Positions 24,823 through 63,669 of a stretch of 64,000 bases of DNA are shown here, in pieces. The notes beneath the pieces were generated by a model. It saw only the letters and a program-made list of their open reading frames with translations, searched no databases and was not told where the DNA came from. Location of the stretch: contig JAHRHY010000029.1 in the NCBI GenBank assembly GCA_019671135.1, forward strand, positions 62,001 to 126,000. Reading direction: 5' to 3'. The number at the start of each line of letters is the position of its first letter. Positions within the stretch are counted from its first letter, which is position 1. Made by a program: the position numbers and the translations under genes. The DNA comes from Linnemannia hyalina. Taxonomy: Eukaryota; Mortierellomycota; Mortierellomycetes; Mortierellales; Mortierellaceae.

Positions 24823-24972
24823 CTGACTAACAGTGTTTCTCAGAAATTATTCGCACCCTTTATTTCCCTGTAAAATGCGAATCGAATCGAAGTAGCATTC
24901 GCATTCGCATCATGTAAAACCAATGTAAAATCTATTTATTCGCATTCGCATTTGAGAAACATTACTGACTAA
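24823..24972. mobile_element. hAT-type MITE with 8-bp target duplication
   Basis: The element body 24831-24964 (134 bp) begins CAGTGTTTCTCA and ends TGAGAAACATTA. CTGACTAA is duplicated on both sides (24823-24830, 24965-24972). The interior is made of GCGAAT/ATTCGC repeats. It belongs to the same family as the element in the hexose transporter at 58999-59101. The duplication coincides with the local tandem motif, so it is less decisive here. Confidence 0.7.
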
Positions 24973-57417: not shown

Positions 57418-59127
57418 TTAAGCAGTAGTTTGCTTCTCCTCCATGTTGGCGAAGGTGGTGGTGGGCTTCCAGGCAGCAGACTTGCGAGGAGAGACTTCAT
57501 CCAACATTTGGTCAACCTGTTCAAGAGTAAGACCTTTGGTTTCGGGAACAAGGAAGTAAGCGTAGACAATGCAGACGGCGCAAAGAGCACCCCAGAGGAA
57601 GAAGACGCTGGATTGCATGTTGGCATATTCGGTACCGACCAAGTAGGGAGTGATATAACCGATGATGAAGTTCCAGAACCAGTTGGAGGCAGTGGAAAGG
57701 GCGACACCACGGGAACGGATGGAAAGAGGGAAGATTTCACCAATAAGAACCCAGGCACCGGGACCCCAGGTGGTGGCAAAGAAGAAGATGTAGATGGCAA
57801 TGAAAGCAATCTGGGCGTTGACAGCGGAGATGTTGTTGGCGATGGTGACTTCATCAACAACGTGGGTGTGGTTGAAACCAACAGTGACACCGATGACAGC
57901 GACAATGAATTCACAGACAGTCATACCGATGGCACCCCAGAGAAGCATGGAGCGACGACCGAAGCGTTCGACAAGCCAGAAGGATAAAGGAGTGGAGAGC
58001 ACGTTGACGAGGGTGAAGATGAGGGACATGAGGAAGGGGTCGCTGACGGCGCCAGTTCCTTTCAAGAAAATGGTAGAGTAGTAGAAGACAAAGTTGACAC
58101 CAGTCCATTGTTGCATCATTTGAAGAGAGATACCCAGGAGAGTCTTGCGGACGTTGGAGCTAGCGAGACCGACGGAGCCGCTGAAGCAGAGGAGCCAGGA
58201 GCCAATGTAGCCAGTCTCGGGGGTCATGCGCTTTTCATATTCGTGGTTGGCACGGATTTCGTTCAATTCAGCCTCGATGTGGTGAGAGTTGGGGTCTTGA
58301 CCACGGACACGGCCCAAAGCCTTGCGAGCTTCCTCGACCTTTCCCTTCTTGATGAAGTAACGGGGGGATTCGGGGAGGAACATCAGACCGACACCAAGGA
58401 TCAAAGCCCAGAGCATTTGCAAGCCAATGGGGATACGGTAAGAGCCAGAGTTATCGAGGTTTTCGGTGCCGTAGCTGACGCAGGCAGCGAGAAGCAAACC
58501 AATGGTGATGCAGAATTGGTAGCCAGAGACGATGGCACCACGGACCTTCTTGGGAGCAATTTCAGACATGTAAAGAATGATAATGGCAGAGACGAAACCA
58601 ACACCGAGACCAGCAACGGTACGACCAACGACAAGAAGAGCAAGACCAGCAGAGGCAGTTTGGAGGGCGACACCAACAATAAAGACAGCGCTACCAAGAA
58701 TGATGGTAAAGCGACGACCAAAGTAATCAGCAAGATCACCAGCGATGAGAGCACCGCAGAAGGTACCGGCTGAGAGAATAGAGACGATAAGAGATGATTG
58801 CCAAGGCAAAAGCTTGTCGGCATCGGGGCCGCTGATCATCTTGATGAAGTAGTCCATACCCTGAACACCACCAATGTATCCGGAATCGTAACCGAAGAAG
58901 ATACCTCCGAAGGAGGCGAAAACGCACATGGCGTAAGTGCGCCATGTAACTGGGGCTTCGACACGGTCAAGGTTTTCGGCGGCGACCACACCAGTTTCTA
59001 GTGTTTTTCAAATGCGAATGCGAATAAAGAGGTTTCTATTAATTTTACATGATGCGAATGCGAATGCGAATGCGAATGTACTATGTTCTTGAGAAACACT
59101 ACCAGTTTCGGTGTCTTGTTTGGACAT
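57418..59127 (-). CDS. MFS hexose transporter
   Basis: Two exons: 59103-59127 (ATG and eight codons, MSKQDTET plus one base) and 57418-58997. A 105-bp GT-AG intron (58998-59102) is essentially a MITE. The protein of about 530 residues has twelve predicted membrane segments, GRR-type motifs after TM2 (DYFGRRF) and TM8 (ERFGRRSM), PESPRYFIKKGK after TM6 and PETKG at the C-terminal side, the signatures of sugar porters. QQWTGVNFVFYYST is the TM7 sugar-selectivity segment. It imports hexoses by proton symport at the plasma membrane in this family. Codon use is strongly biased to C-ending codons, suggesting high expression. If the MITE is not removed, reading from the ATG meets a TGA within it after about 36 codons. 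Confidence 0.93.
58991..59109. mobile_element. hAT-type MITE inside the hexose transporter N-terminus
   Basis: The body 58999-59101 (103 bp) starts TAGTGTTTTTCAA and ends TTGAGAAACACTA, 13-bp inverted repeats with one mismatch. CCAGTTTC is duplicated on both sides (58991-58998, 59102-59109), the 8-bp size of hAT. The interior is GCGAAT repeats. It is the same family as 24831-24964. On the gene strand the TSD/MITE junctions read G|GT and AG|, giving intron boundaries exactly at the element edges. Confidence 0.88.
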
Positions 59128-59242
59128 GATTAATTAGAGAAGGAAGATAATATTTTTTTTTCTTTGCCAAAGTACCGCCTTTTTATCCTGTAACCTCCCA
59201 CAACTCTCCGCCCGAGAGGAGACTAAAGAAAAGAGTGCTTGG
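59128..59242. promoter_or_regulatory. Transporter upstream region
   Basis: The minus-strand sequence upstream of the ATG at 59125-59127 is AT-rich with A runs. No clear TATA box was assigned. It abuts the large tandem repeat. Confidence 0.35.
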
Positions 59243-60158
59243 GGAATGAACTCAAAAACAAGGTTACATGGCCAAGTGGTGTCCACGACAAGTTTGGCCG
59301 TTTCGCCTAGCTTTGAACTATGTTCGGTCTCGACCGTTTTGTAAGGTATCTGCGGTTTAGTAAACGAACGAGAGTACAGGGCCAAAAACCCTTCAGGACG
59401 TTTTCTTCTCGTCTTATCCTTATCATTTGCTTATCTGCAGCTTATTTTGTTTACTTTTGCCTGGTTTCAACGCGTGGAATGGATCTGGTACCGTAATCGT
59501 TCGCTTTCTGCTGTTTTCAGTCGCTTGTGCTCTTGTCCACTGGCGTACTGATAACCGTTTGTGATATTGGCATGACTACCTGTCCTATGGAATTGTCTTT
59601 CATTGGAATGAACTCAAAAACAAGGTTACACGGCCAAGTGGTGTCCACGACAAAGTTTGGCTATTTCGCCTGGCTTTAAACCATGTTCGGTCTCGACCGT
59701 TTTGTAAGGTATCTGCGGCTTAGTAAACGAACGAGAGTACAGGGCCAAAAACCCTTCAGAACGTTTTCTTCTCGTCTTATCCTGGTGGTCCAGTGGAATG
59801 AACTCAAAAACAAGGTTACACGGCCAAGTGGTGTCCACGACAAATTTTGGCCATTTCGCCTAGCTTTAAACCATGTTCGGTCTCGACCGTTTTGTAAGGT
59901 ATCTGCGGCTTAGTAAACGAACTAGAGTACAGGGCCAAAAACCCTTCAGAACGTTTTCTTCTCGTCTTATCCTTATCATTTGCTTATCTGCGGCTTATTT
60001 TGTTTACTTTTGCCTGGACTCAACGCGTGGAATGGATCTGGTACCGTAATCGTTCGCTTTCTGCTGTTTTCAGTCGCTTGTGCTCTTGTCCACTAGCGTA
60101 CTGATAACCGTTTTGTGACATTGGCATGACTACCTGTCCTATGGAATTGTCTTTCATT
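59243..60158. repeat. Composite tandem repeat, order A-B-A-A-B
   Basis: Unit A (about 178 bp) begins GGAATGAACTCAAAAACAAGG and ends TTTTCTTCTCGTCTTATCC. Copies are at 59243-59419, 59605-59783 and 59795-59972. Unit B (about 187 bp) begins TTATCATTTGCTTATCTGC and ends GAATTGTCTTTCATT. Copies are at 59420-59604 and 59973-60158. Copies are more than 95% alike by eye. Open frames inside are antisense to nothing recognised. Confidence 0.9.
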
Positions 60159-60839
60159 GGTGAATTCGACACATAGACAGCACGCGATAAGAAGGAGGCA
60201 CAAAGGCAACACAGAGTCTTCTCTTTGGCCATCGAACGAAAAGCAAAAAAAAATCTGTGGGGTTGAATGAATTAAAGAATACATTTTTTCTCCTGCGCTT
60301 TCATCTCCACAACCTTTAAAACGCTTTCATTCTTCTCAATAGGCTGTGGAGAACAGAAAAAAGTGGAGAGATAAGAACGAGCATGTCCAACCCTCAACTC
60401 CAATCTCCTCTAAATGCATCATTTGCATCGTTTAGTGTGGAGAGATAAGCAGAGCATGGTGGATTGTCCCTCTTGCCACTTCCTTCTGCGCCATCTGTTT
60501 GTTTTGTGTGCGTTCTTCTGAGCCTCCTGCGCCATTTGCTTGTCCTGTGGTAATTTCCTTTGAGCCACTTCCTTTGTGCTATTATAGTTTTATTTCAATT
60601 AGCCCCAAAAGCCACAATTGCAAAGCCACAGCAAATGGAAGGTGGAGTATTTCCTACAAAACCAATCATTTGCAATCTTCGGTGACGTTTCATTTTGATG
60701 ACGTCCATCCTTCTTGCCTGTTCCATCACCGTTCTTGCCTGTTCCATCACCGTTCTTGCCTATTTCATCATCCTTTTTACCTATTCCATCAGCTCGCTTG
60801 TCAGTTACCTCATTTTTTTTAAGATAAAGATTAATTGAG
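60159..60839. other. Intergenic region with a 20-bp minisatellite
   Basis: At 60706-60800 the unit TTCTTGCCTGTTCCATCACCG repeats about four times and ends 40 bp upstream of the next ATG, so it is in the presumed 5' UTR or promoter of the small gene that follows. Confidence 0.6.
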
Positions 60840-61130: not shown

Positions 61131-61597
61131 GCCGCTGCGATCTATTGCTCGACCAACCTTAGTTGGGATGTGTGTATGTAGACAACCTGGTCCAATAAAA
61201 ATATGATACTACCCACGCTTTCATCTCTTTCATAGTGGCCAGCGAGGAGATCATGACTATGCAATCCGTTTTTAATCCCTCTTTTTTCATCGAGTTATAT
61301 CCATCTTCATCCACATCATCTATTTGAGACTCGATTAAAATTCTCAAAACACCTTTTTCCCAGCTCTCTTAGTCTACTAAAAGTTGCGCATCCCATGGTG
61401 TTCTTGTAATAGCAACAGAGATACAGGGTGTCAGAGTGGGTTCAATGGGACAAGAGGACGGATGCAAAAGAGATATTGTTTATTGTACAGGGCAGTGCCA
61501 TATCCCTTCAACCGTTTTTGAATCCAATTTTTCTTTTTCTTTTTCAATTTATCAGGGTTTCCAATAAAACGGGTTGGGAAGGGTCTCGTGTCGTCTA
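61131..61597. other. Intergenic region, no supported gene
   Basis: The 3' flank of the small gene and 5' flank of the piggyBac-type gene. No terminal TTAA plus inverted repeat pair was found here. Confidence 0.4.
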
Positions 61598-63669
61598 ATG
61601 AAAACAACGAGGGTTGTCGTTTCCCAGCTCGCCTCATTACCACCTTCGCTGTCAAATTCGACCTTTTTTTTCTCTCTCATCATCTCCAAAGCCTCCGTTA
61701 CTGTCTCCCTCACAAAGAAAACTTCGCCCAACCTGCTCATGCACCCAAGCTTCGAGTTCCTACGTTCCTTTGACGTTTCTAACGGTCAAGGTACTAGCAC
61801 ACTCACTTCCGAGGAGACAGAGGAGTTGTCGTTTTCGGTCATTTGCCGAACTCGAGAGATTGCCGGTGAGGATGATTCCGATGATGAAGAGCGACCACCA
61901 GAAAGAGAGCAACCGGCGGGAGAGGAGGTGTCCCCTGCACCCTTAGCTCTCGCGAAAGCGAAGAGGGCTGTCAAGAAAGCGAAGAGGGCTGTCAAGAAAG
62001 TCACCCGCGAACCCACAGAACTCCCAGCCGTCCCTGACTTCAAGGACGTCTTCAAACACCAAAAAACAGTATGCTCAGCACAAACCAACCTTCCCCTTGC
62101 ACTTCAACTCGACAGCGAACTATCACCATTGACAATTTTCACACTCTTCTTCTCCGACCCGGTATTGACGGATTTGGCAGACAACACTAACGCATATGCA
62201 GCATCAAAAGGAGCCGGCACAGGAGAGGGATCGCGCCAATGGGTAAAGACCACACCTGACGAACTGCGCACATTCCTCGGCATCATTGTCTACATGGGCA
62301 TGTTCAGGCAGAACTCTGTCTCTGAGTATTGGTCAACCTTCTCTGAATGTCCTCAACACAACATCACTAACTTCATGTCCCTCGTCCGCTTCGAACAACC
62401 GAAGCGTTTTTTTCGTGTCTCCAACCCCAACGAGCCTGAGCAACATTGGTTCTCAAAAGTAGAACCTCTTTCGACCAAACTCGCTACCGACTTCGCTCGT
62501 TACTACGTTCTCTCCACCAATGTGTCCATCGACGAGATGATTGTTCGCTTTTCAGGAAGGAGTGCTCACACCGTACGCATGAAGGGTAAGCCTACCCCCG
62601 GAAGGCTACAAGATTCTCGCTCTTTGTCAATCAGGATACACCTATTCCTTCCTCTACACCCCTCGCATCAAATCCATCATTGGCATAGACAGGATAAACG
62701 AGCTTACTCCAACCTCTTCCGCTGTTGTTCGTCTCGCCAAATCACTCCCCTACAAGACTCGTCCATTCAACATCTACATGGACAACTATTTTCCAACATC
62801 CCGCTTTTCAAGCACCTACGTGGACTCAACATCGGCGCATGTGGTACCACCCGCATCAACTCAGCCTGCTTCCCTGACACTTTGAAAGTGGGTAAGAGTG
62901 AGAAACTACAATGGAATACCCTGACAGGAGTTGTTATCGACAAACAAGTTCTTGCCGTCGTTTGGATGGATAATGCACCCGTCACCATGCTGAGTACCAT
63001 CCACAAAATCAACACGGATGATGACTTCATTGAGCGTATTCGACGCTGCCCTCGCAACACTAGCACTAACGCAGCCAATGCTCGGGCAATATTCAATGGT
63101 AAGCCCAGAGCGGCACTCAAAATCCCCAAGTTGATTGATGACTACAACCACAACATGAATGGCGTCGATGTCAGTAACCAGTTCAGGGCATATTACAGCA
63201 CCCAATTAACCGTGTTCAGGACGTGGATGCCTCTCTTTTTTGGATTCTCGACACCACCATCGTCAACGCCTATCGAATCTATGTCGTCCAAAAAGGATCC
63301 CTTTCTCACAAAACTTTCTGTCTCAGGTTGGCATGGGATTTGATCAGGAAGGGAGCAGAAAGCAAACAGCACATGGACTACAGCAAACGGACACGAGTTC
63401 ACAGAGCCACCAAACCAGAACCAACCAAGAAGATATATGTTACCAAAAATTGCTCTGATCTGCCCACCATCCGTTTCACCCCAGGACCCCACTCACCCAT
63501 AATTCTCGACCAAAAATCCAACTGCTTGTTCTGTCGCTTCAGAGCCACTGTCTTCGACGACAAAAACCACGATAGAAAAACTCAAACAGTCATAGCCTAT
63601 GAGATCTGCAATGTTGCCTTGTGTATGTCAAAGGCCCGCAATTGCTTCAGAGAATTCCATAAATCGTAG
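61598..63669 (+). pseudogene. piggyBac-type transposase with three frameshifts
   Basis: From the first ATG at 61598 (an alternative start is MHPSFEF at 61739) the protein has an acidic N-terminus and a duplicated KKAKRAVKK block. piggyBac catalytic segments appear in order: SIDEMIVRFSGRSAHT (first Asp), IYMDNYF (second), VVWMDNAPVTM (third), then a C-terminal cysteine-rich domain (CLFCRFRATVFDD, ICNVALCMSKARNCF). The frame changes near 62598 (CCCCC run), near 62812 (CTTTTC) and near 63237 (T7 run). The total of three indels in homopolymers fits pseudogene decay or homopolymer error. TTAA termini were not found. Confidence 0.82.

What the first reader, a model, noticed from the sequence alone, without database searches (positions are those of the whole stretch)
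58991..59127. A hAT-type MITE has apparently become an in-frame spliceosomal intron in a hexose transporter
The 103-bp MITE lies after the eighth codon of the transporter. With the 8-bp target duplication GAAACTGG (gene strand), the junctions read G|GT and AG|G, so donor GTAGTG uses the last G of the upstream TSD and the first T of the MITE, and acceptor TAG uses the last A of the MITE and first G of the downstream TSD. Removing 58998-59102 (105 nt) adds six nucleotides of TSD, two codons, and keeps the frame: MSKQDTET, E-T, GVVAAENL. If unspliced, the frame meets a stop inside the element. The reading frame of the other 500 codons is intact, which would be unlikely if the MITE had killed the gene. 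The element thus behaves like an introner: a transposon that makes a new intron.
Basis: partly seen in the sequence, partly recalled or inferred. Interest (0 to 1): 0.88.

Follow-up and report, generated by a model that had tools for sequence, protein, structure and literature searches.

The report
Transposon probably turned into an intron
In a soil fungus, copies of one small jumping DNA element sit inside two well-conserved genes, each placed so that the splicing machinery could cut it out again, which looks like new introns being made from a transposon, although no RNA has been examined.

Summary
A 103-bp MITE (58999-59101) with perfect 8-bp TSDs GAAACTGG interrupts codon 9 of a conserved, single-copy sugar transporter; orthologs show the uninterrupted N-terminus. 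The host genome (51.5 Mb, Mortierellomycete by homology) holds 16 copies found by similarity, at about 11 independent sites, plus two truncated ones.

One of them gave an independent second case: at C5:715274-715376 it splits a conserved single-copy 1066-residue TPR/Sel1/zf-MYND gene. There the upstream TSD supplies a donor (GTACGA), and the element's last A plus the TSD's first G the acceptor TAG; removing 111 nt restores the ancestral protein exactly. The only other clear coding insertion makes no junction GT and lies in a gene copy with four further in-frame stops. Both intact genes show no excess of changes at conserved residues. Both copies lie in the same orientation and share two substitutions that create a TTAAT branch-like motif and a GTACAT donor.

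Splicing is inferred; no RNA was available. Introners are known; a TIR/TSD-bearing, hAT-type one in an early-diverging fungus appeared in none of the listings seen.

The parts
58999..59101 (-). 103-bp hAT-type MITE, forward orientation relative to the transporter gene
   Evidence: TIRs, 16 genomic copies, TSDs
58991..58998 (-). downstream TSD copy (GAAACTGG in gene sense); its first G (58998) completes the acceptor TAG
59102..59109 (-). upstream TSD copy (GAAACTGG in gene sense); its last G (59102) starts donor GTAGTG
   Evidence: donor score -2.99 bits
58998..59081 (-). candidate intron B, 84 nt, donor GTACAT inside the element (59076-59081); adds nine residues
   Evidence: donor score 2.45 bits; shorter than the 16 predicted introns of 97-275 nt
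59038..59042 (-). TTAAT, branch-point-like YTRAY motif 41 nt from the 3' splice site
   Evidence: function inferred
58998..59000 (-). acceptor TAG, from the element's last two bases and the first base of the downstream TSD
59008..59010 (-). in-frame TGA met if the element is not removed
57418..59127 (-). sugar transporter gene (Sugar_tr, PF00083), start codon at 59125-59127

Best explanation
A small family of non-autonomous hAT-type transposons inserts with 8-bp target duplications. When the duplicated site starts with G on the sense strand, the element's last A and that G form a TAG acceptor. A GT donor then comes from the duplicated site itself (MYND gene), from its last G plus the element's first T, or from inside the element. 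The spliceosome removes the insert and the gene survives. Shown: the insertions, the TSDs, conserved single-copy host genes, the GT and AG positions, open frames after removal and stops without it. Inferred: that splicing happens, which donor the transporter uses, and that TTAAT is the branch point.
For: Two insertions in two conserved single-copy genes, each with in-frame GT-AG removal and a stop when unspliced. In the MYND gene removal can be seamless. No excess of unique changes at otherwise invariant columns: transporter 1 (eight others 0-24), MYND 9 (eleven others 6-31). Lengths 102, 105 and 111 nt fall within 97-275 nt of 16 predicted introns, and 14 of those 16 end TAG. The one other clear coding insertion, without a junction GT, is in a pseudogene. 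Both intact-gene copies are forward and share TTAAT and GTACAT.
Against: No RNA. GTAGTG (-2.99 bits) and GTACGA (-0.18) are weak donors against the genome's own; the best one in the transporter, GTACAT, gives an 84-nt intron shorter than all 16. Some GT-AG pair restores the frame at 1177 of 1576 and 2509 of 3178 random positions, so restoration alone proves little. A looser motif, YTNAY (TTTAT), is in the forward orientation of all ten copies compared, so TTAAT may not be special. Both insertions may be too young for decay.
Confidence: 0.62

Rival explanations
1. Two recent loss-of-function insertions: the element is not removed, both genes are damaged in this strain, and too little time has passed for the frames to decay.
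For: TSDs are perfect. The MYND copy has only one change not seen in the other 103-bp copies compared, the window copy three. Donors are weak.
Against: It needs two independent hits in single-copy conserved genes that both happen to offer 0 or +2 residue removal, possible at 179 of 1576 and 622 of 3178 positions.
Confidence: 0.22
2. The transporter is made from a downstream start codon and the element is simply an upstream insertion, unspliced.
For: An in-frame ATG follows, about 20 codons after the insertion (MCVFASFGG).
Against: It removes the conserved N-terminal tail present in the orthologs and cannot explain the MYND gene, split near residue 436 of 1066.
Confidence: 0.08
3. The insertions are absent from part of the nuclei or are assembly artefacts, so the genes work from uninterrupted copies.
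For: The assembly shows one copy of each locus; other nuclei or strains were not available.
Against: Perfect 8-bp duplications at 8 of 11 independent sites are the mark of real transposition; no second copy of either gene was found.
Confidence: 0.05

Closest known systems
Introners with TIRs and/or TSDs (Gozashti et al. 2022, PMC9860276; passages seen)
   Same: Non-autonomous DNA element that becomes an intron, with splice sites shared between element and TSD; some families add codons (12 bp in Aureococcus).
   Different: Here 2 probable introns in a family of about 18 copies; the main text has no mention of hAT or Mortierella (0 hits each).
Introner-like elements of ascomycete fungi (as described in PMC9860276, passages)
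   Same: Repeated new introns in fungi.
   Different: Those lack TIRs and TSDs and have been read as RNA-copied; this one has both and looks like a DNA transposon.
Transposon-bearing recently gained fungal introns (PMC8476143, section 8 read)
   Same: Fungal new introns holding DNA transposons (Kolobok-H, PIF/Harbinger, TcMar-Fot1).
   Different: hAT is not in the named list; those are 15 introns in 12 genomes, not repeated copies of one family.
Ds elements spliced out of maize genes (recalled, from no call)
   Same: hAT element in an exon removed as an intron with splice sites at its ends.
   Different: Individual plant alleles with other elements.

Membership tests
hAT superfamily MITE | 8-bp target site duplication | tested here: met
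   perfect at 8 of 11 independent sites, counting L015-L020 as one
hAT superfamily MITE | short TIRs of hAT type | tested here: met
   13-bp TIR TAGTGTTTYTCAA; that TAGTG fits hAT is recalled
hAT superfamily MITE | autonomous partner with hAT transposase and the same ends | tested here: inconclusive
   PF05699 (1.2e-13) in an ORF beside an identical 13-bp end at C24:108601; the far end was not fetched
hAT superfamily MITE | many short, non-coding, near-identical copies | tested here: met
   16 copies, 91 or 103 bp where complete, 84-96% identical to the window copy; two more truncated
Introner | element ends coincide with GT-AG sites so that removal keeps the frame | tested here: met
   two genes; but most random insertions allow some restoration
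Introner | removed by splicing, shown in RNA | not testable with these tools
   no RNA data
Introner | same family found as intron in several genes | tested here: inconclusive
   2 probable introns; a third coding copy is in a pseudogene
U2 spliceosomal intron of this genome | donor close to the genome's consensus | tested here: inconclusive
   GTACAT 2.45, GTACGA -0.18, GTAGTG -2.99 bits against 16 predicted introns, kept because they start GTA
U2 spliceosomal intron of this genome | TAG/CAG acceptor, YTRAY upstream, length in range | tested here: met
   CACTAG, TTAAT at 41 nt, 102-111 nt; the 84-nt option is below the range

The most novel reading that the evidence does not exclude
This is an introner caught at birth. 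In one subfamily of an ordinary hAT-type MITE, two substitutions, G23A (making a GTACAT donor) and C61T (making a TTAAT branch point), turned the element into a portable intron. The two copies that carry both are exactly the two inside intact conserved genes, while copies without them lie outside intact genes. It would be a TIR/TSD introner in Mortierellomycota, built stepwise from a normal transposon.
Probability: 0.27. Interest if true: 0.82.

Novelty: new variant of a known kind. Interest (0 to 1): 0.62.

Why it matters
How new introns arise is an old open question, and introner families are usually seen only after they have spread widely (inference from the copy numbers in PMC9860276). A family with about 18 copies, two probable introns, a spliceable-looking subfamily differing at two positions, and an insertion in a dead gene for contrast would let the first steps be tested directly by RT-PCR and a reporter. 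It would also extend introners with DNA-transposon ends to an early-diverging fungal lineage; the ascomycete ones lack such ends.

Tried and rejected
Looking for more decayed copies: the core pattern with up to 3 mismatches gave the same 16 copies, so no older introns from this family were found; two truncated copies (L053, L056) were seen only through the TIR pattern, so 16 is a lower bound.

Family B (134 bp, 7 copies): no clear coding insertion among the 7; one (L060) lies in a 177-codon open frame of unknown status and has no matching TSD; not followed.

L013 has the right duplication on the strand of a transposase-like ORF copy, but that copy ends 7 bp before the duplication (its intact neighbour matches DDE_Tnp_4), so it was not counted. 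L014 lies outside the adjacent minus-strand ORFs, so it was not counted either.

A first list of chaperonin introns by profile coordinates was too ambiguous. A codon-usage model gave 21 introns in 8 of 10 genes, two genes giving no path. Five of the 21 that do not start GTA were dropped as likely mispredictions, which biases the donor table towards GTA. A larger intron sample (proteasome genes) could not be fetched.

RNA folding of the element was unremarkable, z -0.06. Pattern scans of viral and prokaryote contigs found nothing. The idea that only the TSD configuration could restore the frame was rejected: in the transporter 15 of 29 GT-AG pairs, and in the MYND gene 35 of 143, gave a long open frame, many by deleting conserved residues. 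The MYND half was empty through a missing stop codon in my input and was redone. One search crashed and was rerun. Two proteins with internal deletions (P0008, P0010) and one lacking its N-terminus (P0122) were left out of the constraint counts.

Full report
What was checked. The element lies at 58999-59101 and is flanked by perfect 8-bp duplications, GAAACTGG in the sense of the sugar transporter encoded on the minus strand. The window is C22:62001-126000 of a 51.5-Mb genome. The ten best listed homologs of the transporter are from Mortierella, Podila, Haplosporangium, Entomortierella and Dissophora (120 of 7587 hits listed), so the host is a Mortierellomycete; the species was not determined.

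The family. A search with the element gave 16 copies. The core pattern with up to 3 mismatches gave the same 16 and 0 control matches. The paired-TIR pattern gave 14 and 0 control matches. Complete copies are 91 or 103 bp. Six of the 16 (L015-L020) share their flanks, so about 11 insertions are independent, and 8 of these 11 have perfect 8-bp duplications. Two truncated copies (L053, L056) come on top. Two further MITE families have similar ends. An ORF with the hAT dimerisation domain (PF05699, 1.2e-13) lies beside an identical 13-bp end at C24; its far end was not seen. Together these fit a hAT-type MITE.

The host gene in the window. The transporter is single copy; the next match in the genome is 36% identical. 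Orthologs begin MSKQDTETGVVAAENLDRVEAP or a close variant, as do the joined flanks. The N-terminal tail varies by a few residues among orthologs, so a small addition is plausibly tolerated (inference).

An independent second case. I tested the flanks of 11 loci (10 independent sites; the truncated L024 was not included) for long open frames across the empty site, and found one more intact gene. At C5:715274-715376 the element interrupts a gene whose parts match TPR, Sel1, HEPN_DZIP3 and zf-MYND. The 14 best relatives listed, from Podila, Gryganskiella, Linnemannia, Mortierella and unnamed sources, are 85-91% identical over the second part. It is single copy; the only other match is 34% over 80 residues. 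All 11 orthologs aligned read straight through the site without two extra residues. Unspliced, the frame stops at once. Two junction pairs work. The 105-nt pair (GTAGTG...TAG) adds Tyr-Glu. The 111-nt pair uses donor GTACGA, supplied by the upstream duplication GGTACGAG, and restores exactly 1066 residues. The second is the usual introner arrangement, in which the mRNA does not change.

The contrast. A third copy (L021) lies in the coding part of a Sel1-family gene on C8, judged from paralogs. Its duplication is GTCCTGGA in gene sense, so no GT forms at the junction, although the TAG acceptor does. That gene copy has a stretch out of frame and four further in-frame stops, compared with its paralog. 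It is one case, and the gene may have been dead before; its nearest paralog also carries a stop.

Signals in the element. Of 18 copies, 17 can be read at position 23 and 17 at position 61. G23A (GTGCAT to GTACAT) occurs only in L009 (the window) and L010 (the MYND gene). C61T (making TTAAT) occurs in those two and L011. In ten copies compared, a forward YTRAY motif exists only in those three, 41 nt from the 3' end; but all ten have the looser TTTAT at 27 nt, and all ten have a YTRAY in the reverse orientation. Both intact-gene copies lie forward relative to their gene. Shared descent could explain the shared changes.

Donors. Sixteen introns predicted in this genome's chaperonin genes are 97-275 nt long. 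They end TAG in 14 of 16, have G at +5 in 12 and T at +6 in 15, and 14 of 16 have a YTRAY motif 12-70 nt from the end. Against them GTACAT scores 2.45, GTACGA -0.18, GTGTTT -2.6 and GTAGTG -2.99 bits. The sample is small, predicted, and limited to donors starting GTA. In the transporter all three of GTAGTG, GTGTTT and GTACAT give an open frame with the TAG acceptor. In the MYND gene the internal GTACAT does not restore the frame with any acceptor tested.

How much is chance. I placed the majority element (the sequence of L013) at 1576 and 3178 positions of the two coding sequences, in both orientations. Some GT-AG pair restored the frame at 1177 and 2509 positions in each orientation. A change of 0 or +2 residues was possible at 179 and 622, a seamless one at 81 and 139. 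In forward orientation 423 and 533 insertions stay open even unspliced. A duplication of the form G......G is offered by 58 and 183 positions, one starting GGT by 45 and 29. The rule G......G was read off the first locus, so the second is the fair test: about 0.06 for G......G, or 0.009 for GGT chosen afterwards. This is suggestive, not overwhelming.

Constraint. At columns otherwise invariant, the transporter has 1 unique change (eight others 0 to 24) and the MYND protein 9 (eleven others 6 to 31). There is no sign of decay, but recent insertion would give the same.

Known or new. Introners that take splice sites from TSDs are known, and some add codons (PMC9860276, passages). That paper says that ascomycete introner families have no TIRs or TSDs, and its main text contains neither 'hAT' nor 'Mortierella'. 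A study of 644 fungal genomes names Kolobok-H, PIF/Harbinger, TcMar-Fot1, Copia and Gypsy in recently gained introns, not hAT (PMC8476143, section 8 read; passages). Seven literature searches listed no introner in Mortierellomycota; two searches listed only 10 of 169 and 12 of 136 papers. Passages of two listed papers showed nothing relevant (PMC7466969; PMC9503022). Passages of PMC11782384 treat direct repeats at introns in general. The algal mechanism paper of Huff et al. 2016 was not held. I call this a new variant of a known kind, with splicing still to be shown.

Noticed in passing
window 24831-24964: A related 134-bp MITE (family B) with perfect TSD CTGACTAA; 7 copies in the genome, 96-100% identical to this one.
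   Followed up: partly
L052, L055, L057, L004 (C17:97619, C48:40246, C12:18956, C6:823953): A third, GATTC-rich MITE family with the same TIR; the L004 copy lies next to ORFs that look Crinkler-like by eye (recalled).
   Followed up: no
L054 (C24:108601): hAT transposase ORF (PF05699) beside the same 13-bp TIR; candidate autonomous partner.
   Followed up: partly
L046 3730-4853 (C6): Broken-looking hAT transposase ORFs (PF05699, 2.9e-7) about 100 bp from MITE copy L011.
   Followed up: no
L015-L020 (C50, C28, C12, C7): Six MITE copies share one flanking sequence, three of them within 25 kb of a contig end, as in a duplicated subtelomere (the subtelomere reading is inference).
   Followed up: no
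window 61574-63343: A long ORF that resembles a piggyBac-type transposase by eye (recalled, not scanned).
   Followed up: no
window 59241-60160: A repeated block of several hundred bases upstream of the transporter, seen by eye.
   Followed up: no
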